Source of the DNA: Asterochloris sp. CNOR1
Taxonomy: Eukaryota > Chlorophyta > Trebouxiophyceae > Trebouxiales > Trebouxiaceae
Reading direction: 5' to 3'
Assembly: GCA_963969365.1 (NCBI GenBank)
Contig: OZ017761.1
Span: 682,001-746,000 of the forward strand
DNA: 64,000 bases
Positions 1 to 64,000 of this stretch are shown here, in pieces. Made by a program: the position numbers and the translations under genes. The notes below the pieces were generated by a model that worked only from the letters and a program-made list of their open reading frames with translations, made no database searches and was not told where the DNA came from. How positions within the stretch are numbered: the first letter of the stretch is position 1; each line of letters opens with the position of its first letter.

Positions 1-3000
1 TGCGGAGTGCGGAATCTGGAAGCGCTCTTTGGAGTCCTGGTCGGGATCATGGCAATCTCCTTTGGCATCATGTTTGTGGATGCTGGCGTGCCTGCTGGTC
101 AGGTTGTTGAAGGTGCGCCTCACCGTCAGTATGGCGGCAGCCTGCATGCTGCCCTAGGTAAAGCATGCAGCACTGGAGTCGGGCCGAGGGTCGTCTCAGA
201 AATTGGCTGTCCATCTCTACCCCTGTTTGAGCAGTCTACATGTGCTGGCAGGCCTACATGGGCTGGCATCAACACCAGCATGTCCATCGCAGGGCCTAGA
301 CACACACATGCCTGCTTGCCAACTGCCAGCCCAACACTTAGTATGGGCTCACAAGCTTTATGAGAAACTTGAGTGATTGCCTCCTGTGGCTCCCTACCTG
401 TTTGGACACGCTCCAATGCAGAACAGGGCAGGCAAAGAATTGTGCTGCATTGCTGAATCAATACTGTTTGGCTGCAGGGCTTGTGTTGCCGCGTCTGCCG
501 GCCTCCTCTGTGCACTTTGCGGTCGCCATAGTGGGCGCCATCATCATGCCACACAACATCTACCTGCACTCTGCCCTGGTCCAGTCCAGGTCAGCCTGCC
601 TTGCTTGAAGTGAGCTGGAGGCATGCCACATAACCTTTCAATTTGGCCTTACTTGTCCTGCCATGCAGGTCGGCCTGCCCTTGCCCCAGTTTCCTGCATG
701 ACTTGCATGTAGACTCAACTGCTGGACCCTGCCCTGCACACTGCCCTGTTGCAATCTGAGGCAGTCTGACCAGATCCAGCATGACACAGGCCTCTGTTAT
801 ATCCTATAGTTTTGCTGTCCTGTCATGCTTGAGTCCAGCCTGCCACACGGCTGCTGCACTCTGACCTGCCCTCTGCACCCCACTCTGCCTTCCTGCACCC
901 CAGACAAACACTTAGAAGCTGCAGAAGGGGCTTGGCCTGTGTGAATCTCTGCACACAGCACCAGTGCAGTCCATGGTGGCCTGCCATCCTCACACGCAAC
1001 TCCAACAGGGCTTTCTTTGCACCCTGTGCAGCATTTCACTACTGACCCAGTCCAAGCTACACTGCAATGACAAGACTGGTCCCCGTCGTGTCACTGCTTG
1101 ATTTGTCGTCACTTCCAGGCAGCATCAGCCAGCCTTTGAAAACTTGACTGCTCTCCATCTTCTGTCATGACTATCTGGTCTGCTCGCATTCAGCTGCCAT
1201 GCTGCCAGTACTGGCTGCAGGAGCGCACTGCTGCTGGCAAAGCTCCCATTTGTGTTGGCCAGGCCACACTCTGCCCTGACCAGAGCAGAAAGGGGTGGTG
1301 CATCCAATTCCATTCTCACCCTCAGCTGACATACCTTGTCAGACACCTTGACGTCTTGAAGCTGCACCTGGAGCCAGGACTGAAGATTCTGCATTAACTG
1401 AAGATGTCTCCACTGCTTGTATCACCCCCCAAACCGCCCCCTTGCCATGTGCTGTAGGAAGATCAACACAGCCCAGCCAGCCCGCAAGAAGGAGGCCGTC
1501 GCCTACTTCAGCATTGAGTCGGCCATTGCCCTGGTCATCAGCCTGTTCATCAACATCTGCGTGGTGGCAGTGTTCGCCCGCGGCTTCTTTGGCAAGGGCA
1601 TCGAGGACATAGGGCTGCAGAACGCTGGGGAGTATCTAGGCACTGCCTTTGGCAAGCACATGGTGAGAACTGCATGTTTTTAATGTGGCAGATTGGCAGC
1701 AGCACAGAATGTGTTGAGTACACACAGAAAGCAGCTGAGGACAGACTTCAATTCCGGAATACTAGGAGGCCCTGCTGGGGCAGAGCTGCTGCAGCATGCC
1801 CTTGTAGTGACTGCAGGACCTGCCAACATAGAGATGGCCAGCACAGCTTCAGCGCAGGCATCTGCACAGCCTGTGAAGTACGTGCATGGTGCCTGCTTGA
1901 CATGCAACAGGCAGGTGCGGGTGCTGTCCGTGCAGCATGGAAGCCAATGCTGCCAAATCTCTTTGAGGCAATACGTAAGCAGTAGCAAAGCGCCCACATG
2001 CCCACACCCAAGCAGGAGGGCAACGGCCTCCTGTCGTCTGTCCAGAGCTGCTTGTACCCTGTGCACTCTCCAGTGCATGGCTCAGCGCTCGTCACCCCTG
2101 CAGGAGCTGGTGTGGGCAATTGGCCTGCTGGCCGCAGGCCAGAGCAGCACCATGACGGGCACCTACTCTGGCCAGTTCGTGATGTCAGGGTTTTTGGATC
2201 TAGGGGTGACTCAGTGGCAACGCGTGGCCGTCACGCGGTCTGTGGCCATTGCCCCCACGCTGGTGGTGGCCCTGCTGTTCCGCGGCGGCGGCAACCAGCT
2301 GGATGTGCTCAACGAGTGGATCAACGTGCTGCAGTGCATCCAGCTGCCATTTGCCCTCATCCCGGTGAGGTTTGGTGGCATATGGGAGGGCTGTTTGTCA
2401 TGAGGACTGACAAGGTTCATCTTTGAAATGGTTGTCTCTGCGCCAGCTCAGCGTGCCTGGGGTGCACTCCTGCCAGTGGGTCTGACTGCACTCCGAGCTG
2501 GTCAGTGTGTCTCTGGCGCCCCTTTCGGCCTCTTGTCTCGTGAGCCAGCCCAGGCCGTAGCTTGTGGATGGTGGACCAGAATGTATCTGCATCGTGCAAT
2601 CATGGCAGTGAGCCCACTGACTGAGGCTGATCTGGTGAGACTGCAAACAAGCATCTGGCTTGCTCATTCTGGCCTTGTTCTACATGTTCTCAGAGCAGCC
2701 CGGTAGCACTTGGGCAACCTCTGTGCTCATCATGAGCAAGCTTTGCGGGAGGGCCTCAGCGACCTTGCGCTGGTGCAGTGCCATGTCCTCTGACTGCACT
2801 CTCTTGGGCAATGCTTGCAGCTGCTGACCATGGCCTTTTAGCACATCATGGGCACTTTCTTTATGTTTATCCTCCTGACCTGATCTCATTGTGCTTCAGC
2901 AGCTGACCTGAGCTGGTGACCTTCCACACCTGCTGACTGCGGCTGACTGCACCCTGTCTGCAGCTGCTGACCATGACATCCTCTGAGCGCATCATGGGCA

Positions 3001-3952
3001 AGCCCTTTGTCAACACCACAGCCAGCCAGGTGGTCGGCTGGTGCATCGCAGCCGGTGTCATGGCAGTGAACGCTTCCGACATCTGGGACTTCGCTTCCGG
3101 TGCTCTGGGGCGGCGCCCTTCCCTCATTGCACCGTTCTCGCTTGGAGTCATCCTGTACCTGGCCTTTGTCGCCTACCTTGTGATTGGCCCTGAGAGGTGA
3201 GTGCTGCATCAATTTTAAGACTGGGAGCCTAGCTTTATCGTCATTGATGCTGAGCAGCAAGCCGCTGTACCTCATCCGTCATCCTGTGCCTGGCCTGTGT
3301 CGTCTAAGTTGTGGTGGGCCATCACCCTGCGTTGTCCTCGTTGCCTGCCTTGTGATGGGCCACAAAAGGCGACCGCTCGCAGGAAGCACCTGCTGCGAAA
3401 GCTTTGATCATGTTGTGGACTGCCTATGAGAGGCGAGCTCCTTGCAAAATCAAGTTCAGGGTGAATTTAAGTTTTGCGCCGCGCTCAACATTTACCTCAG
3501 GGCTGGACAGGAACCCTGGTACATGCAGCGGTGCATCTCTTCTGTGCGTGGGGCAGCATTCTTGCTCTGCGTGTGCTCTGTAGCGGATCCTCTGCTGGCT
3601 GCCGGGCTTGGGACTGCAAGCCTCTGGACTGAAGTTGCCTCTGCGAGTGGCAGGCCAATGCCATGAGCAAGTGGCATTGGTCATTGCTGGTCCTGGCTGC
3701 AGGTGGTCCTGGCTGTGGGCCACCATGCAGCTGTCAAGCTGGCCTAACAGAGCTACAGAGAGAGATCTCTATGTGTATCTGAAGACAAGCCCTTTGACCT
3801 GCAGGATGCAGAGCTGGCAGCAGCGGTGGCGCCCTCAACGCGAATCTGTGAAGGCCGAGCAGGACCTAGACCCCCTCTTGGAGAGTGCTGTGCCCCATGG
3901 CGACAGCAGGCTCAGCACTGCCAGTAGTCAGAGCAGCTTGCATGCCAGTTGA
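1..3952 (+). CDS. NRAMP-family divalent metal transporter, 3' part
   Basis: Proton-coupled uptake or export of Mn2+/Fe2+ across a membrane is the known role of this family. The 5' end lies outside the window. Exons that join in phase: 1-112, 478-589, 1458-1662, 2104-2364, 2964-3196, 3805-3952, giving 356 residues. The hallmark metal-site segment IIMPHNIYLHSALVQSR is in the second exon, and GLLAAGQSSTMTGTYSGQF (the conserved transport signature region) opens the fourth. LDVLNEWINVLQ and the hydrophobic stretches near 3000-3190 match later helices of the family. The DPGN motif of helix 1 must lie upstream of the window. The last exon encodes a hydrophilic Ser-rich cytosolic tail. Two introns carry decayed copies of neighbouring exon borders. 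Family assignment is secure; substrate and membrane are not visible. Confidence 0.93.
2814..2854 (+). repeat. Echo of the NRAMP exon 5 acceptor junction
   Basis: Intronic copy of 2957-3000: the acceptor CAG, then CTGCTGACCATG and later CATCATGGGCA are shared. The copy has an in-frame stop and is not a usable exon. Confidence 0.8.
3278..3361 (+). repeat. Two echoes of the NRAMP exon 5 end
   Basis: 3278-3320 and 3331-3361 resemble the last coding bases 3147-3190 (GTCATCCTGTACCTGGCC and CTTGTGATTGGCC). They lie just beyond the donor, in the following intron. Confidence 0.75.
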
Positions 3953-4083
3953 GTAGTCAGTAGGAAGTCCCCCTCCCCTGTCACAGCACTCTTCTTCCCT
4001 ATATCTCTGAGCCAGTTCAGTTCATTGTATGTCCACCAGTTGAAATGTATGCAATCCTGAGGTTGCACCCCTAAGGGGTCATG

Positions 4084-4088
4084 TGTAA
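4084..4088 (+). terminator. TGTAA polyadenylation motif of the NRAMP gene
   Basis: TGTAA, the usual green-algal polyadenylation motif, lies about 130 bp after the stop at 3952 and before the next gene. Position and strand fit; the cleavage site was not determined. Confidence 0.55.
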
Positions 4089-4425
4089 AATCCAGCTTGC
4101 ATTGCTTTGGCTTTGCTGCTGAACAATATCTGGGCCCGTCAGACAGGGGGAGCACTGGTCATTCTAAGGATGCTGTTTCGTGGTAGACAGTGTGAGAACA
4201 TAATTCTCTGAATAACCGCTGAAACACTAATCTCTGAGAATGCGTTAGGTCTCAGATGATCAATTGGAGGCCATGCCGCTAGGAGATAGGACGGACTGTG
4301 GAGATGCCCGTTATGTTGGATCCGAGACTGGTTTCTCTGCAGATGCCGCAAACATCTTGCCGGTCAGCCATCTGCAATAATGAAGTGCTGCTGCTGGCTA
4401 TGTATGGCTTCGTCTCGATTGCTTG

Positions 4426-7400
4426 ATGACCCACGGACTGACAAGAGCTGCTGATCTGCAGCGCATGCTGGTCTGTGGATTTGACTTTGTTGTCACACCA
4501 CTGGTGGACCCTCAGCACAGACCTGATCTGACTGATGCCAGCACCCAAGCGTTGCACAGGCGCAATGTGATGCTGATGGCAAGCCAGTGGAGCGGTCAGG
4601 TGGCTACCTGCACTTGATCTGGCCCTGCATATCTGCTATCATCACCCTCGCAATGCTCCTGGCTCATGCTGTTCCATTGGGTACTTGCTTCTGTTGAACT
4701 GCCAATCACTCTTGATGCGCTTGATGCTGAGCTGTTCAACATCTGCTTCAAGCCTAGAGGAGTTATCACCGCAGCCCTGAATGCGCAGCCTCCAGCTTTG
4801 AGCTGCACATAGGCTCCCAGTCACCAGCATCAGTTGCGATGCACAAGTCCAGCTGGGCTCCACACTTCTGCTGGCCTGGAGCTGCTGGGCAAAGGCAGCA
4901 GCTTGTTTGGCCTGGACTATTTCACCAGCAGCTCACAGCTTCAGCCTGCCTCACACTTGCTCTGTTCTGAGCACAGCCCTTCTTTGGTGGGCACAGGCAG
5001 CACCTGTGAAAATGGGCAGACCTGACCAGGAACCAGCCACACAAAGGACTTGATCAGTGTTTATAGCGCCTAATCTGCAGGTGGCGGGCAACATGAGCAG
5101 CTGGACTGCACCTCTCAGCCTCGCACAACTTCAGCTTGCTGCATTGGCAGCACAGCATTGCTAGCACTTGGCTCTGCTGCAACCAGGCCCCAGCATCATG
5201 TCAGTGCTGCACCTGCTGCAAGTGGTGGGTCAAGACCAGCGGCTGGAACACTGTGGACATATAGGCCACGAGACTGCGTAGTGTGACCACCCTTACGGGC
5301 CTGTTTCAGATGCTGCAGCGGTCTTCTGCAGGTGGTGGGCAGGACCAGCAGCTGGATTGATGTGGACTCCCCAGACGTTGACCTGGCTCGTCAGAGCGAG
5401 GTGGCACTGCAGCAGCAGCTGGAGTGGGCAGCCTTCCTCTCCCTGCATGCCTGCGTGCTGCCGCTGCCGCCGAGGGTGCGCAACAACAACTTTGCGTGCA
5501 TTGTCAACCAGGTGAGACATTCACTTCAGCTTGCTTGTTGCATCAAGTTGCCAGCAGGCCGCGCGGGCAGCAATCTGACCCGTTGCACGCTGAAAAGGTG
5601 AGGCAATGGCTTGCGAGGCTACATGGGGCTGCATGCCTGCCTTGCCGGCGCCATCAGGTGGCGGCTGATTGCACCACCGCTCAACTCTCGATCCTGAACC
5701 ACTCAGCTGCACAGGTGTGCATCAGCCGGCCTTGGCCTGCTGTCGCATCTTGCAAGCGCAGCAGTGTCTCAGACCAGCACCAGTGCCAAGACAGCCTGCT
5801 GAGCTGCTTGCAGGTGGCGGCTGGGCTCAGCAGCATGACCATGTGGATTCAAGTTCCGATGGCGGCGTCCAAGCAGCACCTATCTCAGCAGCAGCCTCGG
5901 CAGCCTCCCGTTTCCAGTGATGCTGCCCAACATTCTGGGGCTCCCCCTCCCACAGGTGAGCCCTGTTCTCCACCACCTTTGCCGCACCTGTCCAGGCGCC
6001 TGGGAGCTGTCCACCATTGGTGCGCCTTGGCCATTACTCTGCTTGTTGCACCTGTGCATCAGCTGTTGTCTATCGTCCCCAGGGTTGGGTCACCCTCATC
6101 ACTGGCATCAGCAGCGCCCTGCAGCTGAGATCCGTGCTCGCTAAGCTGGGCCTGCCCTTGCTATCGCAAACATGAGGAATTGGCCATTCATTTGGCGTGT
6201 TGCACCTACCCATCAGTACGCACAGCGTCCCGTGGTGCTTGCTGCTGCCTGCCAGAGTCTCTGGGTCTGCCAGCACGCTGCCTTACAGATACTGGCGCAG
6301 CTTGAACTTGAAGTTCATTTGTTCCCTGCTGTGGAGAGGTCCTTCTGCTGAGTCAAAGTCAGCCACCCGCTGTCACCTGGCACCTGCCAGACTGTGCAGG
6401 GATGGGGGACCCATGCTGCAGAGGTCAGCATCCAGAAATGTGTGCGGCAGGATCCAAGGGAATTGGTAAACGATGCTGCTGCAGAAGGCAGCTGCCACCG
6501 CGGTGTGGAGCAGGATCCCTGGGAGTGGTGGAACCGGGTACGCAGCCTGTGCGAGCACAGCACCAAGCTGGGTCTCATCCTGGAGGTGCCTGCTGTTCTG
6601 CCAAGCCAGCAGGAGGTGAGGCAATTGCAGAGCTGGGCACGCCTGTGGCGTTCTGCGCCTGTGTGAGCACAGCACCAAGCTTGCCAGTGCTCTGGGGGTG
6701 CCTGCTGCCATCCTGCCCAGCTAACAGCAGGTGAGTCGGGGCAGAGTCCGTCTGCTCAAGCGAAGGCATGACTGCTCATTGGTGTTGCCAGGGATCAACA
6801 CGCCATCACAGACTCCTTGAGACTGCTTGACACATCCTGCTGGCCACCAGATGGCCTCTCAATGCTTGTGCATTGCTGGCCTGCATGTGTGTACAGCATG
6901 AGGTGTTGTACCCCTAGTGCATCTGCAGAGTGACTGTCGACATTGTCTCTTGATAGGCCAGCAGCTGCGCAGATTGCTGGTGGTGCCGGTCAGAGCCAGT
7001 TTGATGTGATGTCTCATGTCTAGCCCTGTGTGCACTATGTGTGGTACTGCTGCCTGCAGGTACAGCAGTGGCTAGGGAGCAAGCCGTTCTGAGATAGTGC
7101 TTCGTAATGTGCAGCACTGCATTTCTCGAGTGGCTGTGATAGAGCAATTGCTGCGCCTGCAGGTCCAGCGGTGGCTGGGGGAGCCTGTCAAGGCTGTGCT
7201 GCTACACACCAGCTGCTACACACGGAACAAAAAGGGATTCCCTGTGCTGAGCAAAGCCCACCAGGAGTTGATGACAAGCATGTTTCAGCACAATGTGCAG
7301 GTGGGTCCTGCAGTGCCATGCGCCTAAGCACAGAATTCTGTGTCACCTCAGGTTTGCAGCATGATGTCAAGGTGAGAACTGCATGACAGTGTGAGTGCAA

Positions 7401-10400
7401 GTATAGATACTCTCAAGCCAGGCCATGTCCCAGCGGATTGTAAAGGCGGGTGCTGCCGTGCAGTGTGGGTGCAGCACACATACAGACCCACGTCAGACAA
7501 TGTTGATTTTAGTGTTGGAAATTTCATTCTGAGAATATATGGAAGCAAGACACGGGTGCTTTGCATTGCAAGTACTGATAACAACATGCCCGTCCCGTGG
7601 GGCCAACCCTGTTAAAGGTACAACGTGAAGATGGGGTGTCGATGCCAGCTGAGTGCCAGGGTGTGGAATGCTGTGTGCAGGGTGTGCTGCAGGTTGCAGG
7701 TCTTTGCCTGAGCTGTCATGGCTTGGGCTGCTATGCTCATCGCTTGAGCTGGCCATGCGCATGACTGTCCCCGATGCCTGGACTGCGTTGCTGAGGACAG
7801 TCCGTCAGTGAGGTGCTGCATGTGAGCATGATGCAGTGCAGCAGGGCTCAGCATCCAACTGCGTGATGCCATGAGTCTTCACTTGGTGCTTTGCATGCTT
7901 CCCTTGCATCAGTAGCTTGATCTGTGCAGGTTGTGGTGTCTGGCACGCCAGAGCAGATGCACGGGACCCCAGCTGCAGGTGCTGCCCAGGACCCTACACC
8001 AGGGGAGGCAGCATCCATGCAAATGCCAGCGGGCGGCGCTGGTGAGCTTCTTGCCGCTGCTGTGGCAGCATCTCTTTCTGATGGCATGACTGCGGTTCCA
8101 GCATGACAATCCCAAGGCCTGCCATCACAGCTTCCTGGTGCTGCCGCTGGGGCAGCCTGCATCATGCTGCAGTCACAGCCTGGCTGAAGCAAGTTGGGCA
8201 GAGCAGTTGACACTAAGCAGTTGACACTAAGCAGTTGACACTCAGCAGTTGACACTAGGCTACTTTGGTGCGCAGCTCAGGCAGAAGTGCTGCCCACCTG
8301 CACCCATGTTGGCAATGGCATGGCTCTCTGAGATGTGCCTCCTGCCCAGGGCCCAAGCTGGGCCCACGCAGTTAGCACTCTGGCTGACAGGCTTGCTGCC
8401 CGGCACCACCCCAGTGGTTGTTGTCATTGAGTGCCTGCTGTAGCCAAAGCCGGAGTAACTGTTGGGCATGCTGCTGGCACACATGTGCCGTCTGCCCAGT
8501 CTGTGCTTGCCGTACAGGCAGCAATCTCACCTGCTGGGCAGGACGCCCACCACCCTGAGGGACTACCAGGAACATCTGGCCTCTGCTTGAGCCTGGAGGC
8601 AGCAAGCTGCTTGTCAGGCGGGCTGGGCCCTGCCCTGCACTTGGGCTGACTGTCTGGCCCCTGCCTGCAGGTCCGCTTACATCGTACGGGAGCCTGCTGG
8701 CCCAAGGCGGCCATGTGCAGGCCACCCATTCTCCTCTGTGATGTGCTCGGCAGTTCCCTGTCTGCAGGCAACAACTTGATTGCTGGCCAGGCTGCCCAGC
8801 ATCCCCTGAGGGACTACTGGGAGTACCTGGCCCACTTGTTCAGGCGGCAGCCCCTGCCGACTGACGATGAGCGCATGAGCCTGGGCTACAGGGACTTCCT
8901 GCAGGTGGGGTCAGACACTGAATGCTGAGCGGTGCTGCTGTGCTGAGCAAACAGCTTGGACAGCCTGGCAAGCTGAGACGTCATAAGCTGTAGGGGCTGC
9001 AGGAGCCGCTGCGAATGATTACTAGGTCCTGTGATGGCTGACGCCGATCAGTGCAGAGCCTGGGCTACAAGCAGTAGTGAAGATGCACCAGCTGCTGCAT
9101 TGTGTTGCACCAGGTACACTTGGCAACCAATTTTCAGGAACCTGGGCTACAAGTTACTCTCTGCCAAGTCACTGACTGCTGCCATGGGCTGGCTTGTTGT
9201 GTTGGCACCCATGAGCAGCCCTCTCACACTGTGTAGCCTTGCCCCGCAGGCGCCCCTGCAGCCCCTGCAGGACAACCTCGAGAACTCCACCTACGAAACC
9301 TTTGAGCGGGACACCATCAAGTACACGAAGTACGAGGAGGCCATTCGCCAGGCCCTGTGTGACATGGCGCCCACCGCTGAGGTGGTGGTCATCATGGTTG
9401 TTGGGGCTGGGCGGGGGCCGCTGGTCAGGGCATCGCTGCAGGTGGGCAGGGCTTGAGCATGCAAGGTTGGGCAGGAGTAGAGCATAGGAGTCTCAACCTG
9501 GTTGTTGCTGCTCTCAGGGCCGAGGTGGCTTTCGCAGCCCCGTGGCAGCCTTGCATGACATTGCTCGCACCCTTACGACGGTGCTTGTCGCTATGATCAG
9601 AGCAGGCCTGGGGTCCAGTGGTCAGAGTGTCGCTGAAGCAATGGCTAGACACGACTACACCTGCAGTGTCATTGCTCGCTTGTAAATGCGTCTCTGCATG
9701 ACAAGACGGCTGGGGAGGAGCAGGGACAAGGGCCCTGATCAGGGCTTGACTGCAGGTCTGACTGTGGGCATCAGAGAGTTGTGGGGGTGCCCTCATTGCA
9801 TGTGCTATCATGCTGCAGATAGCCGCCAGCGCAAGCAGGGTATGTATGCTCAGTAACCGAATGCAGATACCTGTCCTGTGATAGGGCATCCTGACTGCTG
9901 CTGCAGGCTGCTGCCAGCGCAGGCAGGGCAGTGAAGGTGTGGGCTTTGGAGAAGAACGCAAATGCGGTCATGTCCATCCAGCACCTCATTGCTGTGGAAA
10001 GGTGACTGCCACTGCAGGCTGCGTGGCATGCCATGGCCTGCTGCTCTGCCTGCATTGCAGCTGAAGTGCTGGCGCTGTGGACAAGTGACTTGGCACTGCC
10101 AGCCTTGTCGCAGTCCCAGGGCTGTGACAGCTGCAGACTGTTAGTGTACAGCCTTGTGCCCAGAGCTGGGAATGCTTCAGATTGTCAGTGTACAGCGCTC
10201 TCCTCATGCTGCAGCAAGTCAGGAGACTTTATGGTTGCCCGATGTACCTCATGCTTGTCGCAACTCCCTGTGTAGTCGGGCACAGCAAGCCAAGGTCTGA
10301 TCCCTCATTGGGGGCCCAGGAGCGCCAGCATTTGAGCAAGTCAAGTTTGACAAACTTAAGTTGTGCAGGTATGGACAGCAGGTCACTCTTGAGGCAGCTG

Positions 10401-11975
10401 GCATCAGTGCCCTCATGGAGCTAGTGTGCAGTGTTGATTGTGATGCTGTGCAGGTTGGAGCTGGTCACTCTGGTGGCAGCCCTTGTGCGAGGCATCGGTG
10501 GCTGGCTGCCACCACTCAGCACAACTCACAGGCCCCTCAGATCTGCACAGGACAGACGCCAGGTCACTGGTGTGTCAGTGCGACATGCGTGGCGCTGAGG
10601 CCCCATGCGCTGGACAGACGCTCCCCCACAAGGGACCCTGAAAGGCCTGTGATGCCTGTGCAGGTGAGAGGAGCAGGTTCTGCTGCAGTCAGCCAGCATG
10701 CATATCTTGGCGTCACGCATCAGAATGCAATCTGCTGCCTGTGCAGGTGGGAGGAGCAGGTCACACTGGTGTCAGCCGACATGCGCACCTGGCAGGCTCC
10801 ACAGGCTGCCGACATCCTCGTCAGCGAGCTGCTGGGCTCCTTTGGCGACAACGAGCTGTCCCCCGAGTGTCTAGATGGGGCCCAGAGGTTTCTGCATCCT
10901 CGGGGCGTCAGCATCCCTTGCGCCTACACCAACCATTTGCAGCCGGTCACCTCCAGCAAGCTGTGGGCTGATGTCAAGGTGAGAGGGCTTCGCTGAAGTG
11001 AAGCTGGCTTGGCAGTTGGCTTCATATGCATCGACGTCGGTGGGTTTGGCTGAGGCTTTGGTGTGCTGGCCCTCTGCCTCAGATAATGGCCTTCTGCAGC
11101 AAGCTGCATTGCTATCTTGGGGCAAACATGCTGTCGTCTCAGGAACAGAAGAATGTGCCCTGTGCCAATGGGCGTCCTGGCATACACGGCTCCTGCATTA
11201 CTGGGCCCCTGCAGAACATTGACGACCTGGAGCACCTGGGAAACCCCTCTGTATCCCACCTGAACCTATTCATCTGTCTCCAGCATGTCCCGTTCAATCT
11301 GCGTTGCGTGCAGGCCCACAGCCATCTGGGCACCTGAAGGGCCCTTTTGTGTCCTACCTGCACTGCTTATGTCCCTGAAACATCCATGCAAGAAGCAACT
11401 GTTGTTGCCTGCAGGCTTTCGCAAGCTTTGTGTTCAGAGCACTTGTGTAACCGCTCGTGCCTTACTCGCACTATGTGAACATTATGTTCACAGTTATCAG
11501 TACTGAGATGAGGTTGCTGCAGGCCTACAACGACCTGGAGCACCTGGAGACCCCCTTTGTGTCTTACTTGCACCGCTTCACGCCCCTGGCACCTGCCCAG
11601 CCAGCCTTCACCTTCACCCACCCCAACCCGCTGCAGCCTGCAGACAACAGCCGCCGCTGCAGCCTGACCTTCCAGCCCTACCTGCAAACTGGGGCTGCAT
11701 GCCATGGCTTGGCAGGCTACTTCACAGCCCAGCTGTATGGGGACGTGTACTTGAGCATCCACCCTGAGAGTCACACCCCGGGCATGTACAGCTGGTTCCC
11801 CATGTACATCCCAGTCAAGGAGCCTGTTTATGTGCCACCTGGGTCTGACATTGAGGTCATGATGTGGCGCTGCATTGCAAACCACAAGGTGTGGTACGAG
11901 TGGGCTCTGGCGCTGCCTGGCTCCCTGACACACATTCACAACCCTGCGGGCCGCTCATATTTTGTCGGCCTCTGA
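4426..11975 (+). CDS. PRMT5: Protein arginine N-methyltransferase 5 (PRMT5/Skb1)
   Basis: Type II methyltransferase making symmetric dimethylarginine on histones and splicing proteins. Exons in phase: 4426-4599, 5332-5511, 5814-5955, 6485-6615, 7163-7300, 7930-8041, 8768-8904, 9250-9441, 9907-10001, 10747-10978, 11523-11975 (661 residues; plant and animal enzymes are about 640). The N-terminal TIM barrel shows [20 protein letters not shown] and [10 protein letters not shown]. The catalytic part has [14 protein letters not shown] with the Phe typical of PRMT5, the SAM loop [10 protein letters not shown], and the double-E loop [15 protein letters not shown]. The C-terminus ends in GRSYFVGL as in plant PRMT5. 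The ATG at 4426 is the first in frame; about 30 further N-terminal residues could lie in an unseen upstream exon. Introns hold many junction echoes. The MED7 gene converges on its 3' end. Confidence 0.95.
8202..8257 (+). repeat. Tandem repeat, four 14-bp units
   Basis: AGCAGTTGACACTA repeated four times with one substitution, in a PRMT5 intron. Confidence 0.95.
8513..8581 (+). repeat. Echo of PRMT5 exon 7 start
   Basis: About 69 bp resembling 8763-8832, including the acceptor CAG and the shared blocks CCCTGAGGGACTAC and CATCTGGCC/TACCTGGCC. It lies some 250 bp upstream in the same intron. Confidence 0.8.
9059..9165 (+). repeat. Echoes of the PRMT5 exon 7 end
   Basis: CCTGGGCTACAAG occurs at 9059 and 9141, copying CCTGGGCTACAGGG at 8880 near the end of the preceding exon. 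Confidence 0.55.
9812..9843 (+). repeat. Echo of the PRMT5 exon 9 acceptor junction
   Basis: CTGCAG followed by GCCAGCGCAAGCAGGG mirrors 9900-9932 (CTGCAG, GCCAGCGCAGGCAGGG), 88 bp upstream of the real acceptor. Confidence 0.8.
10652..10706 (+). repeat. Echo of the PRMT5 exon 10 acceptor junction
   Basis: Copies 10736-10790: GCCTGTGCAGGTG then GGAGGAGCAGGT and GTCAGCC are shared, 84 bp upstream of the real junction. Confidence 0.85.
11211..11376 (+). repeat. Two echoes of PRMT5 exon 11 start
   Basis: 11211-11281 and 11329-11376 both resemble 11515-11595. Shared blocks include CTGCAG, GACGACCTGGAGCACCTGG versus CGACCTGGAGCACCTGG, and TTTTGTGTCCTACCTGCAC. Confidence 0.9.
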
Positions 11976-12434: not shown

Positions 12435-14413
12435 TCATGCCCCAGGCAGGGGCGCAACGAAGACGACAAAAGTGTTGTAGCGAACGTGCTGGCCTGAGCT
12501 GTGATGGAGCAAGCAAGATGACCTCACTCGAGGCTGACAGAGGCTCACCGAAGGGGTGATCTGCTCTGCCAGCTTCTTCAGCGTAGCATCGGCTCTGCTG
12601 ATGGCTGCCTGCATGGCTGCAGTTGCTGCCCTTGTCTCCTCAATCTCAGTGCGCATGTTGTGCTCCAATGTAGCCGCTGCCTGCAGCCCTCATCAGTGTC
12701 ATGGTTGGCTGAGCAAGGCTCTGCTAATGGGTCAGCAACAAGCACTTATGCCATTCAAACAAGGGGCAACAGGTTTCTCATGGACATATCGATAAGCCAA
12801 CAGTTGGAAGCTATGCGGGTGAGTGTGCCCTGGACAGACAGAGCAGAAGAACAAGCCCAGCCTCAACGCTCACAGCAGCCGCACAAGGGGTAGCAAGCAC
12901 CTTGACCAGGAATTGCATGAAGACTTGGAAGAGCAGCAACATACATGACGTTTCCGGAAATTTCTGCCAAGGATGACAACAGGCTTGCAGCACAGCGGCC
13001 AGCTGATGAGCAGGCCAAGGTGCCCAGAGTGCTGCCAACCTGCAGCAGCATAGCCTCCTGCCAAGCTGCCCAAAGTTTTGCTAACCTGCAGCAGCAAAGC
13101 CTCCTGCCAAGCTGCCCCTGCAACCAGGCCCCTCCTGCAGGTGGTGCACATGCTGCATAGGCGCCCCATAGCCTCTGCCTGTGCTGCATCTTTGCAACAA
13201 TCACACTGTGCTGGCCCAGCAATACAAGAGCCACCTGGTGCCATGCCATGACATTCAGCAGGTGGTGTGTTCATGTGAGCCGCCTTGGTGCCTCTGTCGG
13301 CGCCGGCAACTGCGAGAAGTATCGCCTTGTGCTGCATTCAGGCAGCTTGTGGACGTGCTGATATGAAAGACCCACCTGGTGCCGCCTCATCACATTGAGC
13401 ACGTAGTGCATCTGGCGCATAAGCCGCCCCACAGCCTCTGCCTGAGCTGGCCACTGCGAGGGGCGATAGCTCAGCATGTCCAGCAGCTCCATCAGGTTGA
13501 ACAGCAGCTCTGTATTCATCTTGAGCAGACTTTCCTTGATGTCTGTAGCAAACAGGCCAAATGTGTTGCAACATTATGCATTGGCATCAAAAGCAGCTCT
13601 GATTTCAGCTTGAGCACGTCGCCGTCTGCAGTAAGGAGGCACATCATGCTCACATCTGAGTGTGAGCATGAAACAACAGCTCTGTTGTTGGCATGAGGAG
13701 GCTGCCCTTGAAGCTTGCAGCAGTACGTTGCAGAATTGGTGCTGCTTGTTGCTGTGGAAGATAGCTGTCTGCTTAGTGTCAGATTGAAAGCAGCGCTATG
13801 TAAAGCCTGGCTAGGCAGCACTTTGCGTATGGCAGCAGTGAGGGGCAGAGCTTCGCTTTACAGTGGGGTCCCATGTGCTGAACAGCAGCCCATGAACTGC
13901 ACATTAATGACCTCAGCTTCAGGCAGCTTGCCTGTGCAATCTGCAGCAAGTTGATGGGCAGGTTCTGAAGGGCCGGCTGGGGCTACTGGTCGTTCTGCAG
14001 GGACAGGGTCTGCAGCACACTGCAACCGCTCACCAATGGTTCCATCTGCCTTTTTGAAAAAGAGAGGCTCTGTCTGCAATGCGGGCACGCCGACCTCTGT
14101 CTGCAGCACAGGAGCAGTGATGCAGCCAAGCACAGGGAACGTGTGTGGGTCAGCCAAGCTCAGGAAGCAGTGTATCAGCCCAGCTCATGAAGTCAGCCAA
14201 GCTGTTGAGGCAGGATGCATCCGACAAGGGATGCAGATAGCGCTGTTGCTGAGGCAGAATGCTCACAGTGTGCAGCTCCCCCAGCATGGCATATTCGCCA
14301 GTGATAGGTGGCGGTGCCTCAGGCGGCAGGGGCCTCTCCGCACTGCCATCCCTGTCTTCCGTATAAAGCTGGTAGAAGGGAGGAGGGGGAGGGTACAAGC
14401 CCTGTAGCTCCAT
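12435..14413 (-). CDS. MED7: Mediator complex subunit 7
   Basis: MED7 sits in the middle module of Mediator with MED21/MED31 and links activators to RNA polymerase II in the nucleus. Exons on the minus strand in phase: 14413-14267, 14100-14034, 13542-13376, 12680-12435, giving 208 residues (yeast 222, human 233, Arabidopsis about 170). The start is the ATG at 14413. The Pro-rich N-terminus LYPPPPPFYQLY followed by PPPITGEYAMLGE is the MED7 signature. The third exon holds the helix LLFNLMELLDMLSYRPSQW and MHYVLNVMRRHQ, matching the conserved core that pairs with MED21. The last exon is a helical, coiled-coil-like segment (EIEETRAATAAMQAAI). The C-terminal 30 residues after it are not conserved, so the true stop is less certain. 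Its 5' end faces UPL7. Confidence 0.88.
13141..13272 (-). repeat. Echo of the MED7 exon 3 end
   Basis: 13226-13272 copies the junction at 13367-13410 (CCACCTGGTGCC and ACATT..GCA..TAGTG), and 13141-13185 copies 13404-13445 (GGCGCCCCATAGCCTCTGCC). Both lie in the following intron. Confidence 0.85.
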
Positions 14414-43300: not shown

Positions 43301-46300
43301 CTCAGCAACTGCAGGGCCAGGACCATGCAGGGGGCTGCACAGAACAGTCCAGGCACTTTGCTAGATGCAGCATGCAGGTGCCTGAAGCAGCCCATGAGAT
43401 TGCAGACAGGAAAAACAACTAGCAGCAATGAATATGTTTACAACAATTCTGCAGGCTGACGCCCTAGACAGTTTGGCTGGCAGCAGCGCTGAGCATTCAC
43501 TATGAGTGCTTGCCTTTGACCCCTCCACAGGCAGGTGGTAGTCCTTGCCTCCCTGATTGTCATAGGTGCCATCCCCAGACTCCACATCGCTGAACACAAA
43601 GTCCAGCATGAAGGCATTCTGGGGAATCTGCAAATGGCAAGAGTCATCCAGCTCAAGGAGCATGGGTGCTAGCGGCAGGAGCAGGTAGCAGTGCATTGTT
43701 TCGTTCAGCATGTGCTAGTGCAGGCAGCATGCAGGACTCTAGCAAAATGGCCTGCCCTCCTTGCTTTATCTAGCACCAAGTTCAAGGAAGCCCCTGCTGT
43801 CCCCAGTCATCAGGCAGCTAGCGGCATGAACACAACCCATTGGGGTGCCAAGGCCAGCGACATTACAGACGCTGTTCCTCCTGCAGCTTTGCGAGGGACA
43901 CACACCGGTAGGGTGGCAGAAAAGTGTTGCCCTCCAGCTGCCGGCGGCTCCATCTTGATGGGCCCCCACTGCCGTGGATACTGCCACCTGCACAGTCAGG
44001 GATCCTGCACTGCTGCATAGTGCGCTCAAGACCCTGGTGGAGCATGTGCAATACACAGCGACGCAATGTGGTCATGACACAGAGGCAGCACCTCATGCGA
44101 GCCATAGTATCAATGCGAAAAGCAGCACAGCCCATAGGATGCTGCTATGGTGTCAACAACCACAGGCAGACTGAGCAACAATACCAGCAGCGATTCATAC
44201 CTGCAGCCTGACCAACAACAACATCAGTGGTCTAAGCTCCTGCTGGCCGCCTGTACTCGACTGTACTGCCCACAGCCACTTTGGAGTCAATGTGCCAGCT
44301 TTCAGGAGAGCTCCCTACAAGTTTGCACTCACCTGTTGTAGCCTCCCCGCACGTAGACCTCTGAACGCCCGTTTAACACCGTGCTGGCAGGGTTGTAAAA
44401 AATCTTGGCCTCCTGCCCAGCCCGCAGAGTGTCTGGCTCTGTGAACAGGATGTGGCGGATTTGCCGCCGGCGCAACGCCTTGGCTTGCTCCTGCAGGCAA
44501 ACAGCTGTGATGGGTGTCTCGGTTCCTTCAGGTCCTCATGTTGATGCCTGCTGCTGACCTGCTGACCATACAGGCGCATTGACTCCTGCAGGTACGCAGC
44601 CGTATAAATAAGCAAGAGGTTGAAGGGCTTGCATGAAGCTCAAGGATGCTGCACATGGGCTATGAGGGATGGTGCAGGCAGGCACCCTGCTACTGTTGCC
44701 CTTGCCCTCATCTTCTCAGGGTCCTCAAATCACAGCATGCAAGCATAGCATGGCAAGCTCATTGCAGCCCTTTCAAGGCACACCATACCGGCCATAGGCT
44801 GCAGCTTCTGGCGCTGGCAGTACAGGCCTGTTTGGAGCTTTGCCACTGAAGTAAGCAGCCACCGTAAAGGGACTTGCACAGCACCACCTTTGCGCTCACC
44901 ACTCTGGCGTGACCCTTGAGCAGCAGACATGCATGTACAAGCGCACCGCAGCCTTGGCGCGAATCTTGGCCCTCCTCTCAAGCTTCTGGTGCTGCGCCTC
45001 CTCGCCTGCCAGCCGCCGCTCCAGCTCCACAGCATGCGCCTTGCCCACCAGGGACTCAAACCAGGCCTCCTTGTCCCTGCAAATGCGCTCAGGGTATGTC
45101 ATGCAGGTGTGCATCACTGAAGTGCTGTGTGCACCTTGGCACTCAAGTCTCCTGGTCCCCATTCTGGGGAGGTACTGTGACCTGTCTGATATCCCGTACA
45201 CAAGTGACGGTCAAGCCACCTCAGCACACATTACGCACTGGCTCACAAGCAGCTCCAACCCAGCCCCATGTGTGTGTGCTGCATGCCTCCCAGGTCTGCC
45301 TGTCCAGTTGACAGCTGCAATGCATGCTGTGCTAAATGCTCAAGAGGCAGCCGGGCAGCATAGTCCTGATACGTAAGGCGGCTGCTGGCCCCACCTTTGC
45401 CCCACGCTGGCCGCTGCCTCAACACCTGCCTCTCGCCATGTGCCAGGACTGCAACCCAACTTCACTGCAATCCCCTGCACTCACTGGCCATCAGGCAGCT
45501 CAACTATGATCCTGTGGTCCTGCCCATCATTGTTGTCATACGCCTCCCAGTACTGCAGGACCCAGGGCAGCGCGACATCTGTGTCCCGCACTGTGAAGTT
45601 AGCCTCCCACCACTCCTCCCCTGCCTGGGAGGGGCGCTGGGAACGCTGCATGGTGATGTGCTGCAGGGCAGGGAGGGGACCACGTCATGGCCATGGCTCT
45701 GCTAGGCGCTGCAAGCGCTGCATGTTAGTAGCAGGAGAGTATTGCAGGTGAGGAGGTTCTTGGGGGGGGGGGAGAGGTGAGCAGCTGTTTTGACCTAGGC
45801 ACCAAGCATTGGCAGCGAACCAGCAGACGACTCACAGCTTGTGTGCTTTGCTGCCATTCCTTGAGCAGACTGGATCACTTGGCTGCGTCTCTCGGCTGGA
45901 AAGCAAGGCAGACCTGGATGTCCTGCCAGCTGTTGTGGCCCAGCTTCAGGGCTGGTGCGCCACCCTCCACAGGTTCAATGTGGCTAAGGGGCCCAGCCTT
46001 GTTGTTGTACAGCAGCTTGGCCTTGCAGCCTGGCTGCAGCACCTGCGCACATGCAACTCAGCTGAGTTGGAAAAGACTTCGAAGACATGTTGTGGTACAG
46101 CAGGTCTGCCTGACAGCCTGGCCCAGCACCTGAAACACAGCTTCAAATGCGGGTTTCTGAGCAGCAGGGCCTGGTGGATGGCCTCTCTGTACCGGCAGTG
46201 TAGATGGTGAGTGTTGCTATCTTCTGATGTCACAAGTCTGGTTGCTCTGGCCTGCACTTTCAACACAGGAGTGGAGGCATGGATGCAATACTCTGTCTCG

Positions 46301-51587: not shown

Positions 51588-54500
51588 ATGCCAGCCTTGC
51601 TACAGCGACAGCTGCAGCAGAGAGCGGTGGGCAGGCAGCTTGTAAGGTCTGCGCGGCAGCAGCTTCCCATCTGGCGATGCAGATCTTGCCACAGATTGGC
51701 AGTGCGTGCTGCCAAGACTGCAGATGGCCCCACTGTGGCCATCGTTGGGGTCAGTGGTGCTGTGGGACAGGAGTTCCTGAGAGTGAGACCACTACTGCCG
51801 CCTCTGCTGCCTTCACATGCCATTTGATGGCACCTGCTGCGCTGCACAGCATGTGTGCAGGGGCCAGCCTGACCTTTTTACCTGCTGGCTCACAGAAGCA
51901 AGCAGCTCAAAACACCCACAGGGTGTAGCCAGCAGATGCCCAACATGCATGCTGTGCATGCACAGGTACTAAAAGAGCGGGATTTTCCCTACGGTAACAT
52001 GAAGATGCTGGCGTCAGCCAGGTGACAGTCAGGCAGTTTAGGACTCTAACGCCTTACTGACAAAGTAGCTGCTATGGTGCACTGGCTAAGGCTGCTGGCT
52101 CCAAGCGGAGCATGATCATCTGATGCGAGCGCCAGACGCAGTACATTGGTTTCCACAGCTGCCCTACAATGCATGCAGGTCTGCTGGCAAGCAGGTGCAT
52201 TTTGATGGGTCCAATTACACAATAGAGGAGCTGACTGAACAGAGGTAATAGCTGCCGCCTTTTCAGTCCTAAATGATGCATGCTGGGATGGCTGTGAAGT
52301 TGTGTGGCCCTCAATGTGCGCACATACAGAAGCTTTGTCCAGACAGGCAGAAAGCAGCACATCCATGGCCTGGCTGAGCTGCAATCCATATGGAGGACTG
52401 CATTGGACTTCTGAGTCTGCACCTGAGCCAGATTGCTGAAAGGTGTGCTGCATGTGCAGCTTCAAGGGCGTCGACATCGCTCTTTTCAGCGCTGGAGGGT
52501 CCATTAGCAAGAGATTTGGGCCGCTTGCATCTGACCTTGGCTGCACGGTGAGGCAGGCAGATGCTTGCCAACAGATGTTTATGGCAGCATCCTTTTGAAC
52601 CTCCTGTCATCTGCTGCACATTGCCGCTGCGGTCTCCTCCTGGTCGTCAGGTAGGGCTGTCAAAGTTGCTTGGTGGTCAACTGACTCATAGTCAGCAGCC
52701 TTCCACAACGTGTCAGCCCCTCAAGTGGTGGCTGGTGTAAGTGGTTCACAGCAGACAGCAGCTGTGCAGGCTGGGGTACCACAATCAAGCTTTGTAGCAC
52801 AGATGCTCTGAATGAGGAGAGAACAGCTGCATGCCACGGCTGCCTGGTGCAGGTGTCCTGCCCGGCTGGTTGCTTCACTTGTCTCAATGCTGCGCAAACC
52901 CAAGGTAGCAACATCGAAACGGCTGTCAGCTGCAGGTGGGCTGCTAGCGTGTCAGTGCCACCGTCTCAAACAGCTGCGTGGGCCCAGAGCAGTGGCACCT
53001 GCAAGAGCTGCCTGCTGCAGGTATGCGGCCAGCATGCCAGTGCCACCACTGTCAGATGCTGCGTGTTCCCACATCAATGACACTTGTAATGGATCCCTGC
53101 TGCAGGTGGTGGACAACAGCAGTGCATTCAGGATGACAGAGGGGGTGCCCCTTATCATTCCAGAGGTCAATGCAGATGCCATGAAAGGCATGAGGTGGGT
53201 GCCACATTACATGCACAGCTCATGTACATGAGGCTCATGCCTTTGCACAGGGAGTGTTGGATGCAAGTCTATGCTGAGCAGCTGGAGCAGTCACGCCACG
53301 CTGTGGCCTCAGAAGGCCAGACTGAGTCGTGCAGTGATGCGTTTGTGGTCATCCCCATGATGGCCCTGCGCTGATATGCACTGCAAAGCGTCCCGCTGAG
53401 GGCCGCTCCCATTGCATTCTTGCAGCTCGTAGGTACCTGTGTAGAGCATATGCCCTGCAGCATTGGCGATGTGCTTCACAGGATTACAGACAGCGTGAGA
53501 GTCCTGTCATACATTGCAGTGCAGAGACGCCTCACCTGTGCTGCAGGTATGGCAAGGGTGGCATCATTGCCAACCCCAACTGCTCCACCATCATTGCGCT
53601 GATGGCTGTGACGCCGCTGCACCGGGCTGCAAAGGTCAACCGCATGGTGGTTAGCACCTACCAGGCAAGCGCCTGTGCATGGTGCAGCGTTGGCAGTGCA
53701 CCAGGCTTGCTCTGAACACTCTATGCAGAAGCAAGGCTTGGGGGCTCAGTGTTTTTGCTGCTCCAGACTCCTGAACATCAGTAAAACCCCCGTACTTGCT
53801 GTAGGCGGCCAGTGGGGCTGGCCAGGCTGCAATGGACGAGCTAGAGCTGCAGACACGGGAGTCTCTGGAGGGCAAGCCCATCACAACAAACATCTTTCCC
53901 TTCCAGGTGGGCCATAGCTGTTGTCTTGTGAAGTGTGGTCGCTAAAGGGCAGGCCTCAGACTTATGCATGCAGATGCTGCACAAGACTGGAGCTGTCGCC
54001 GAGTGCCCGTGACAGACTCGCTGTGGCAGCTGTTGGGCTCGTTTGCTGCTTCCAGCTGCAGACCCTTAGTACGCAGATGCGGCTCATGCATCACGTGTGA
54101 CCTGTACCCTGCGGACTCTCTCACTAGCTGTCTGCTCTTGAGTACATCTGCAAGCTGTTGAGGCAGCAGCTCCAGGGTCTGCACCTGCAGCTGGACCTCT
54201 GCTGGCAGCACAGCCCCTGTGGCTCCCCCTGGTGCCCACTGACAGGCTGCGTGCTGCTGCAGTACGCCTTCAATCTCTTCAGCCACAACAGCCCCATGAC
54301 AGAAAACGGCTACAACGAGGAGGAGATGAAAATGGTCAAGGAGACCAAGAAGATATGGGGCCAGCAGGATGTCAGCATCACAGCCACCTGCATACGCGTG
54401 CCCATCATGCGGGCGCATGCTGAGAGCATCAACCTGGAGTTTGATCGTGACATCAGTGAACAAGAGGTGGGGTGCTGTGTAGAAGGATGATGCAGGGCTT

Positions 54501-58654: not shown

Positions 58655-58719
58655 CAAACTGACTTGCCAAACTGACTTGCCAAACTGACTTGCCTGACTG
58701 ACTTGCCAACTGCCCTTGC
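58655..58719 (+). repeat. Tandem repeat, five 13-bp units
   Basis: CAAACTGACTTGC three times exactly, then two diverged units ending in CTTGCAG. Lies between PCD and XCT. Confidence 0.95.
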
Positions 58720-58843: not shown

Positions 58844-59152
58844 CAGCACATGTCTTGCACTGACTGTCGCGCTGCTTATAAGGGATACTCATCATGTGTC
58901 GTGGGGTCTCAATGCACGTTTCGACAGAAAGCGAGTTCATGCAGCATGGTCCCCAGCAATTGATGATGGGCATGGGCTGTTCTCCCAAAAATTCCAAGAC
59001 ATGAACAACTGTAGGTCAACACGTCCCACCTCCCAATTATGTCCACCTCCCAGCTCACAGCAGCGTCGCAACAATGCGGGGCCCTTTGACAGCAACATCG
59101 TGAGGAGTCTAGAAGCAGACAGCGGCCCTGAGGCAATAACAAAGCTCTCACA

Positions 59153-63403: not shown

Positions 63404-63408
63404 TGTAA
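63404..63408 (+). terminator. TGTAA motif downstream of XCT
   Basis: TGTAA about 465 bp past the XCT stop. The long distance leaves some doubt. Confidence 0.4.
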
Positions 63409-63537
63409 ATTGGTGAAGCACACACTCTTTGGCACCAGTAGGGCTGCTGCTGCCTGCCTTAAATGCAGTCTTTACAGCAAGGGGTGCAACGCCTCATCAC
63501 ACAGCAAAGCTGTTGTGATTTGTGAGAGCTGTACAAC

Positions 63538-63580
63538 TTCTGCTGCCCACCTGAGAGGCGGTTTGAGCAGCGCACAGAGG
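63538..63580 (-). repeat. Echo of the right-edge exon end
   Basis: CTGCTGCCCACCTGAG followed by GGTTTGAGCA matches 63623-63665 (CTGCTGCCCACCTGAG, GGTCTGAGCA). Confidence 0.82.
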
Positions 63581-63633
63581 CATTTGCATGCAATCCAACA
63601 GGGTTCCAGAGCTTAAAGGCTGCTGCTGCCCAC

Positions 63634-64000
63634 CTGAGCAGGGGTCTGAGCAACACTGCGCTGGCAGCCGTTGTGCTGGTGCCGGCGCTCCTCATGCAGG
63701 CTGCGGCTGCTGGCCTGCCGCTGCAGTGCTGCCGCAATGCTGTGGGCCGCAGGCCCCTGCTCCCTAGCGCCTCCCATGGCACTCCTGGCGCTGTGCACCT
63801 GCTGGCTGTTCTGCTGCGCTGCGCCAGCCCTGCTGCCAGCAGCAGAGCAGGCGCGGCTGAGTGTGCGTGATCCGGTCCCAGCCTGCGCTGAGTTGCCCCC
63901 AGAGGCTGCAGAGCGGCTGCGGATCAGGCTGCGCAGCCCTGGACCGAGGCGTAGCTGCTGCACCAGGTCGTCGCCCTGCAGCTGCTGAGGGGCCTGAAGC
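63634..64000 (-). CDS. Unrecognised protein, internal exon cut by the window edge
   Basis: A minus-strand frame is open from the window edge down to a good splice donor (CAG then GTGGGC) at 63634. It encodes about 122 residues rich in Ser, Arg, Ala and Gln, with LVQQLRLGPGLRSLIRSRSA at one end and basic, low-complexity sequence after it. I recognise no domain. Coding status rests on the open frame, the donor, and the fact that the downstream intron carries a decayed copy of this same exon end at 63538-63580, the pattern seen beside firmly supported exons in this window. It could also be chance in GC-rich DNA. Confidence 0.4.

What the first reader, a model, noticed from the sequence alone, without database searches (positions are those of the whole stretch)
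2814..63665. Introns throughout the window carry decayed copies of their own exon-intron junctions
In at least ten genes on both strands I find 30-95 bp intronic segments that copy the adjacent exon end or exon start together with the splice border, one to three times per intron, at spacings of about 50-300 bp. Copies of an exon start lie upstream of the true acceptor; copies of an exon end lie downstream of the true donor, so each intron end is echoed by its own neighbour. They differ from the parent by roughly 10-35% by eye and often contain stops, which argues against assembly error and against ordinary alternative exons. Inference: introns in this lineage lengthen by serial local tandem duplication across splice junctions. 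Tandem duplication of AGGT-containing sequence is an established model for intron birth, but such pervasive traces would be notable.
Basis: partly seen in the sequence, partly recalled or inferred. Interest (0 to 1): 0.9.

Follow-up and report, generated by a model that had tools for sequence, protein, structure and literature searches.

The report
Old tandem duplications echo splice junctions
The introns of this green alga carry worn-out copies of the neighbouring exon ends because short stretches of DNA were once often duplicated in tandem in and around its genes, and the traces suggest that this process largely stopped long ago.

Summary
In 314 kb (window plus 250 kb from three other contigs of the same 56 Mb genome), 246 near direct similarity segments score >=17, against 1 at offsets of 6-7.5 kb and 10 inverted near ones. 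Exon-start copies lie in the intron upstream (28 of 760 introns; wrong side 0 of 706), exon-end copies in the intron downstream (38 of 760; wrong side 3 of 706). Composition does not explain this. The interpretation needs correcting. Within genes, event classes roughly match random placement on the gene structure (exon|intron 118 observed, 103 expected). Junction-spanning ones stay visible because the real exon is conserved, so only one copy decays. The geometry is intron growth by tandem duplication, not AGGT intron birth. The least expected result is age: for spacing >=60 bp, 1 of 188 events is young over half its unit or more, whereas 18 constant-rate simulations predict 12-26%. Best fit: about one duplication per 100 substitutions, ending 0.15-0.3 substitutions per neutral site ago. 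That dating rests on my simulations and one genome, with no relative and no other eukaryote for comparison.

The parts
3147..3377 (+). Exon end of the NRAMP-family gene (3147-3189) with two downstream intronic copies (3278-3320, 84% identical; 3340-3377)
   Evidence: donor side, adjacent intron 3197-3702
2715..3003 (+). Copies of the following NRAMP exon start upstream of its acceptor (spacings 143 and 262)
   Evidence: intron 2365-2963
6545..6707 (+). PRMT5 exon end (6545-6595) and copy (6657-6707), spacing 112, 78%
10362..10784 (+). Three related segments in PRMT5 near acceptors (10362-10404, 10650-10701, 10733-10784)
11209..11588 (+). PRMT5 exon start (about 11517-11588) with two upstream copies (11209-11272; 11303-11377). 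My gene finder called part of the copy region as coding; the 34-residue insert is absent from homologues
   Evidence: at most 3 of 34 residues aligned in each of the 120 homologues listed, of 4173 found
13159..13449 (-). MED7 exon end and intronic copies (spacings 141 and 263)
13500..13722 (-). MED7 exon start (13500-13550) and two intronic copies (13589-13616, 13672-13722)
20151..20672 (+). HECT ubiquitin-ligase gene: copies at spacings 180 and 206
31717..31841 (+). Peptidase C13 (GPI8-like) exon start (31809-31841) and upstream copy (31717-31749), including the acceptor
34378..34478 (+). Peptidase C13 (GPI8-like) gene: plain tandem duplication across an acceptor, unit 51 bp, 86%, core fills the unit
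38076..38253 (-). Starch synthase exon start and upstream intronic copy, spacing 124
40682..40968 (-). Starch synthase exon end and downstream intronic copies, spacings 116 and 239
45995..46122 (-). Starch synthase exon start and upstream intronic copy, spacing 88
49326..49725 (-). Starch synthase exon end and copy, spacing 271, core 129 bp at 66%
49789..49945 (-). Starch synthase exon start and copy, spacing 120, 84%
52922..53107 (+). Aspartate-semialdehyde dehydrogenase intron: tandem array, unit 85 bp, core (101 bp) longer than the unit

Best explanation
Short tandem duplications, mostly 60-300 bp, struck genes of this lineage at near-random places. A duplication that crossed an acceptor or donor left two splice borders. 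Splicing from the outer border kept the protein unchanged and lengthened the intron, so these were tolerated; the inner copy then decayed without constraint. Duplications inside introns decayed on both sides and fade sooner; those inside one exon survived mainly when a multiple of three. The junction echo is thus largely a visibility effect: the conserved exon is a fixed ruler against which only one copy drifts. For units >=60 bp the process was frequent (0.5-1.2 per 100 bp per substitution per site in the better-fitting simulations) and largely ceased 0.15-0.3 substitutions per neutral site ago. Shown: local, direct, side-specific, non-coding copies, near-random placement within genes, lack of young copies. 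Inferred: tolerance through outer-site splicing, rate and stop time.
For: Near direct 246 segments, far 1; inverted near 10, counting the best segment per centre. Side specificity at score >=14: exon start in its upstream intron 28 of 760 (one random pair per intron: 2), in the following intron 0 of 706; exon end in its downstream intron 38 of 760 (random 0), in the preceding intron 3 of 706. Same-exon repeats have spacing divisible by 3 in 7 of 8. Exon-copy mismatches by codon position 268/1330, 303/1328, 365/1325, as expected if the exon branch is constrained. Stops 16 seen, 16.4 expected. Decoy sites decay about like their surroundings: AG kept in 7 of 18, GT in 7 of 26 usable cases. Residual homology continues beyond the core within one unit (AUC 0.70-0.83 for the all-event and spacing >=150 sets of the three classes). 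Simulation with rate 0.010 and stop 0.2 gives density 0.60/kb (observed 0.60), exon|intron to intron|intron 2.33 (2.38), and close identity spectra. 18 constant-rate variants give 12-26% young-long events, observed 1 of 188; all 22 constant-rate variants give ratios 0.69-1.31.
Against: Acceptor-side cores span the border in 80% of 49 events; the best simulation gives 46% and the constant-rate one 58%. Exon|exon events are 19 of 188, the best simulation gives 14 of 481; some are probably decayed copies called as exons. Intergenic events are half of random expectation (11 vs 23.5). The unit is not seen to fill the spacing in most events: flank homology beats the control's 95th percentile in 29% of 98 exon|intron, 37% of 38 intron|intron and 32% of 19 exon|exon events, and for exon|intron cores with identity >=0.82 the AUC is only 0.59 (n 36). 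Core length stays near 42 bp whatever the spacing. Density varies twofold between loci. Gene models are my own, without RNA. No relative's DNA was available, so ages are in model units.
Confidence: 0.72

Rival explanations
1. Junction-targeted duplication: something about splice borders (transcription-coupled breaks, R-loops, the CTGCAG acceptor motif) makes duplication start or end there.
For: Acceptor-side cores span the border more than the simulations predict, 80% of 49 against 46-58%. In the window exon|intron outnumber intron|intron events 43 to 8 for spacing >=60.
Against: Over the whole sample the genic classes match random placement (118 vs 103, 74 vs 81, 25 vs 21), and donor-side cores fit (45% of 65 vs 47%). 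Copies inside introns and inside exons occur too.
Confidence: 0.12
2. Repair-mediated capture: nearby DNA is copied into a break some distance away (not in tandem), as described for vertebrates.
For: Several high-identity cores at spacings above 130 bp have dissimilar flanks, and flank homology is weak in most events. PMC2671141 (abstract and passages seen) describes closely linked copies of up to 619 bp, including intron splice sites.
Against: Copies keep orientation (246 direct, 10 inverted segments) and side (0 and 3 of 706 on the wrong side against 28 and 38 of 760), and cores abut the border (17 of 23 start-copies and 22 of 37 end-copies within 10 bp, out of the first or last 100 exon bases searched). 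Insertion of captured DNA need not respect side.
Confidence: 0.08
3. The tandem-duplication rate was constant, and the lack of young copies is a technical or mutational artefact (collapse in assembly, rapid early divergence).
For: Only one genome; sequencing method unknown; CpG sites mismatch more (0.43 against 0.18 for other G/C sites).
Against: Young repeats with spacing 20-59 bp are present (10 of 34 young-long) while only 1 of 194 with spacing >=60 bp is. CpG hypermutability, gamma rate variation, indel rate and unit length do not rescue a constant rate (12-26% expected). Collapse would remove only nearly identical units, not those several percent apart (inference).
Confidence: 0.2
4. The copies are functional alternative exons or decoy splice sites.
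For: Some copies keep AG or GT (7 of 18, 7 of 26); among single-difference codons synonymous changes are in excess (178 seen, 136 expected).
Against: Stops at the unconstrained level (16 vs 16.4); splice dinucleotides decay about like neighbours; the one copy checked against homologues, in PRMT5, has no counterpart in the 120 examined. The synonymous excess is explained by the exon branch.
Confidence: 0.04
5. Introns born by tandem duplication of AGGT-containing exon sequence.
For: An established model (PMC3443670, section on tandem genomic duplication read). 3 of 60 copies lie near the far end of a short intron.
Against: Birth register shows no excess: intron start vs downstream exon start, 0 of 760 at score >=12 (0.2 expected); intron end vs upstream exon end 0 of 760 (0.0 expected). 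Copies echo the same border, not the opposite one.
Confidence: 0.03

Closest known systems
Tandem duplication across an intron-exon boundary in a potato RdRp gene (Ma et al. 2016, PMC4974935; abstract and Results and Discussion section read)
   Same: A tandem duplication covering the intron end and exon start; another 83 bp duplication inside the first intron of the same gene.
   Different: One recent case that made a new intron and exon; here over a hundred old cases in 314 kb whose inner copy became intron.
[quoted passage not shown] the name Rogers 1989 and the Hellsten 2011 experiment as given in PMC4974935)
   Same: Short tandem genomic duplication is the mutation; splicing decides what becomes intron.
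   Different: Predicts the opposite geometry, for which there is no excess. Here existing introns grow.
Short local duplications ('doublets', Thomas et al., as described in PMC2671141) and repair-mediated duplications in vertebrates (PMC2671141; abstract and passages seen)
   Same: Short, close duplications including splice sites; the primate rate also fell over time.
   Different: [quoted passage not shown] here copies are direct and side-specific, and most are strongly diverged. Densities cannot be compared, the methods differ.
Local sequence duplication in Drosophila regulatory modules (PMC3188502; abstract and passages seen)
   Same: Decayed local duplications shape non-coding DNA.
   Different: Similarity there reaches about 50-70 bp with motifs near 7 bp; here spacing is mostly 60-300 bp, in genes.
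Introner elements (PMC9860276; search listing with start of abstract seen)
   Same: Large-scale intron change in some eukaryotes.
   Different: Dispersed copies across genes; here only 12 weak cross-gene intron pairs of 22-50 bp among 760 introns.

Membership tests
Short local tandem duplication | Copies in direct orientation and close together | tested here: met
   246 direct near segments, 1 far, 10 inverted near
Short local tandem duplication | Homology fills the spacing (unit = spacing) | tested here: inconclusive
   Seen in several short-spaced cases (e.g. 34378-34478); partial in the rest: flank homology above the control 95th percentile in 29% of 98, 37% of 38 and 32% of 19 events
Short local tandem duplication | Frame-preserving lengths inside exons | tested here: met
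   7 of 8 same-exon spacings divisible by 3
Intron gain by AGGT tandem duplication | Intron start matches downstream exon start; intron end matches upstream exon end | tested here: not met
   0 of 760 at score >=12 in both registers; 3 of 60 copies have birth-like distance
Repair-mediated capture of nearby DNA | Non-tandem insertion, no fixed side or orientation relative to source (my reading of the mechanism) | tested here: not met
   Strong side and orientation bias
Introner elements | Similar sequences in introns of unrelated genes | tested here: not met
   12 weak cross-gene hits among 760 introns, 22-50 bp
Alternative (duplicated) exons | Open frame kept and splice sites kept | tested here: not met
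   Stops 16 of 1227 codons, 16.4 expected; AG 7 of 18, GT 7 of 26
Alternative (duplicated) exons | Present in mRNA | not testable with these tools
   No RNA data

The most novel reading that the evidence does not exclude
This genome records an extinct pulse of tandem duplication: units of 60-300 bp arose at roughly one per 100 neutral substitutions, enough to replace much of the intron sequence, and then the rate fell at least about twenty-fold some 0.15-0.3 substitutions per site ago, while shorter repeats (20-59 bp) kept forming. Such a size-specific shut-off would point to gain or loss of a DNA-repair or replication activity in the lineage, and exon-anchored copies would be a clock to date it.
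Probability: 0.5. Interest if true: 0.75.

Novelty: new variant of a known kind. Interest (0 to 1): 0.52.

Why it matters
It shows how introns can gain length by a plain mutational route and gives a way to read that history: a duplicated exon end is tethered to a conserved reference, so it stays recognisable after ordinary intron duplications have faded. If the shut-off is real, one genome holds a datable record of a change in mutational process. A practical point: an ab initio gene finder (mine) called such a decayed copy as coding (34 extra residues in PRMT5), so gene models in such genomes need checking.

Tried and rejected
Composition (CAG/CTG-rich introns): rejected, since far direct and near inverted comparisons of the same DNA give little. 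AGGT intron birth: rejected as the general cause. Introner-like families: rejected. Mutation-driven early divergence (RIP-like or CpG): transition/transversion 1.14 and 0.97, CpG fast but insufficient in simulation. Gapped BLAST with permissive scores gave long alignments near 60% identity but lacked some pairs seen, and was not used for counts. A loose extension measure (homologous length over spacing) separated poorly from its control (median 0.88 vs 0.60) and was replaced. 17 'different exon' pairs probably include decayed copies called as exons; they were left in the exon|exon class. Introns under 40 bp (27 of 787) were dropped before the own-flank counts. For splice-site retention only 18 of 23 and 26 of 37 hits were usable. 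The first simulations lacked splice-signal constraint and the young-long measure; one search gave too few border-spanning cores (0.30 against 0.60 observed for the scenario nearest to the data), which splice-signal constraint repaired on the donor side only. Literature: nine searches answered; I saw no report of this pattern in green algae in the lists shown (8 to 20 entries asked for in each), and most subscription papers are not held.

Full report
WHERE IT IS. The window is G000:C16:682001-746000 of an unnamed assembly of 56.4 Mb in 21 contigs. In a PRMT5 search the top hit by E-value is a protein labelled Cocos nucifera at 40% identity; the next named ones are Trebouxia sp. (51%) and Coccomyxa sp. 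(52%), with Parachlorella, Elliptochloris and Chlorella following at 49-51%. A trebouxiophyte-like green alga is my inference. I fetched 250 kb more from three contigs. With the window this is the 314 kb sample used below.

GENE MODELS. I had no annotation, so I wrote a self-training gene finder. It converged on donor CAG|GTGAGC and acceptor CTGCAG|G, 841 exons, median exon 98 bp and intron 203.5 bp. Eight translated pieces from 7 of the 11 window models were scanned against Pfam; all eight matched: HECT, starch synthase with CBM53, semialdehyde dehydrogenase plus pterin-4a-carbinolamine dehydratase, XAP5, MED7, peptidase C13, Nramp, PRMT5. One model fuses Nramp and PRMT5. There is no RNA evidence.

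Ungapped near-diagonal scanning of the sample (offsets 20-1519) finds 198 segments scoring >=18, and the same number of offsets at 6000-7499 finds 0. At >=17 the figures are 246 and 1; inverted near segments number 10, counting the best per centre. Spacing peaks at 80-120 bp with few beyond 400 bp. Geometry is as described: exon starts recur in the intron upstream (28 of 760 at score >=14; random pairs 2) and not in the intron downstream (0 of 706); exon ends recur downstream (38 of 760; random pairs 0) and rarely upstream (3 of 706). 89 introns hold such intronic copies: 73 one, 13 two, 3 three. In the window 37 of 146 introns do, in the rest 53 of 614 (from, which counts 90 in all).

IT IS NOT JUNCTION-SPECIFIC IN THE MAIN. 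Merging gives 228 events. Classes: exon|intron 118, intron|intron 74, exon|exon 25, intergenic 11; random placement of the same events on the same annotation gives 102.8, 80.6, 21.1, 23.5. Only the intergenic class departs clearly, downwards. With exons near 98 bp and introns near 200 bp, a random 60-300 bp duplication usually crosses a border (inference).

WHY THE JUNCTION ECHO IS WHAT ONE SEES. Similarity is high in the exon part and falls at the border or within about ten bases beyond it. Decay predicts this: the real exon is conserved, so exon copies diverge on one side only, whereas intron flanks diverge on both. Codon positions agree: mismatch 0.202, 0.228 and 0.275 at positions 1, 2, 3. 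The copies themselves are not coding: 16 in-frame stops in 1227 codons, 16.4 expected. Their splice dinucleotides decay about like neighbours: AG kept in 7 of 18, GT in 7 of 26 usable cases. The PRMT5 copy region that my gene finder took for coding (34 residues) aligns to at most 3 residues in each of the 120 homologues listed, of 4173 found.

WHY TANDEM DUPLICATION. Orientation and side bias, border-abutting cores (17 of 23 start-copies and 22 of 37 end-copies within 10 bp), frame-preserving spacing inside exons (7 of 8), and residual homology beyond the core fit tandem duplication better than capture of nearby DNA at breaks. Against it: in most events the unit is not seen to fill the spacing. 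Flank homology beats the control's 95th percentile in 29% of 98 exon|intron, 37% of 38 intron|intron and 32% of 19 exon|exon events; for exon|intron cores with identity >=0.82 the AUC is only 0.59; several high-identity cores have unrelated flanks. Age explains part of this; I cannot exclude that a minority arose otherwise.

NOT INTRON BIRTH. The AGGT model predicts that the intron start resembles the downstream exon start and the intron end the upstream exon end. In that register there is no clear excess (0 of 760 at score >=12 in both; at >=9, 7 against 3.2 and 4 against 3.8 expected). Three of 60 copies have a birth-like distance. Cross-gene intron similarity is slight (12 weak hits), so introners are not involved.

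AGE. For spacing >=60 bp only 1 of 188 events is at least 88% identical in a core covering half its unit or more. I simulated duplication, substitution, small indels, length balance and exon constraint, and scanned the output with the same procedure. 18 constant-rate variants (one, eleven, six: unit length, indel rate, CpG hypermutability, gamma rate variation) give 12-26% such events. All 22 constant-rate variants (adding two each) give exon|intron to intron|intron ratios of 0.69-1.31, observed 2.38. A rate of 0.010 per bp per substitution per site that stops at 0.2 gives density 0.60/kb (observed 0.60), ratio 2.33, close identity classes, codon-position mismatches 0.203/0.208/0.255 (observed 0.204/0.231/0.281), and cores somewhat longer than observed (median 47 against 43). 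Stop times of 0.15-0.25 without, or about 0.2-0.3 with, rate variation are acceptable; a late rate of 5% of the early one already predicts 5.2%, one of 2% predicts 2.3%. In any steady birth-and-loss process the number of copies cannot rise with age, so reversion of young duplications does not rescue a constant rate (inference). Spacings of 20-59 bp behave otherwise: 10 of 34 are young-long, against 1 of 194 at >=60 bp.

WHAT DOES NOT FIT. Acceptor-side cores span the border in 80% of 49 events against 46% in the best simulation; the donor side fits, 45% of 65 against 47%. Exon|exon events are 19 of 188 against 14 of 481 simulated. Density differs between loci: 0.88 and 0.78 per kb in the window and C8, 0.36 in C1 and C4. 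The simulations' exon rules (share of in-exon and whole-exon duplications accepted, relative exon rates) are my assumptions.

KNOWN PRECEDENTS. A potato RdRp gene has a tandem duplication across an intron-exon border plus an 83 bp one in its first intron (PMC4974935, abstract and Results read). Tandem duplication is reviewed as a route of intron gain (PMC3443670, section read). Short local duplications are known in vertebrates and flies (PMC2671141, PMC3188502; abstracts and passages seen). In the nine searches named under Tried and rejected I saw no report of such density in introns of a green alga or of a datable end to it; I looked at the listed entries only, and the library is partial.

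VERDICT. The finding is real, and its best reading is ordinary mutation seen through an unusually good ruler. The part that would surprise a specialist is the missing young class.

Noticed in passing
314 kb sample (window, L002-L026): Repeats with spacing 20-59 bp are often young (10 of 34) whereas those >=60 bp are not (1 of 194), suggesting two separate processes.
   Followed up: partly
G000:C1 about 568720-569190 (L008, fetched): A complex minisatellite-like array with 71-75 and 150 bp units, 92-94% identical in places, partly called as coding.
   Followed up: no
314 kb sample: CpG observed/expected is 0.31 in introns and 0.47 in exons, and CpG sites mismatch at 0.43 between copies, suggesting cytosine methylation.
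   Followed up: partly
window 8202-8257 and 58655-58709: Short tandem arrays of 14 bp (4 copies) and 13 bp (4 copies).
   Followed up: no
window versus L002-L026: Density of local duplications varies about twofold between loci (0.88, 0.78, 0.36, 0.36 per kb).
   Followed up: no
window 11209-11370: A decayed exon copy passes as coding in ab initio gene finding (34 extra residues in PRMT5); an annotation hazard in this genome.
   Followed up: yes
P0001: The best PRMT5 hit by E-value is a record labelled Cocos nucifera (40% identity) ahead of green algae; odd, possibly a mislabelled or chimeric record.
   Followed up: no
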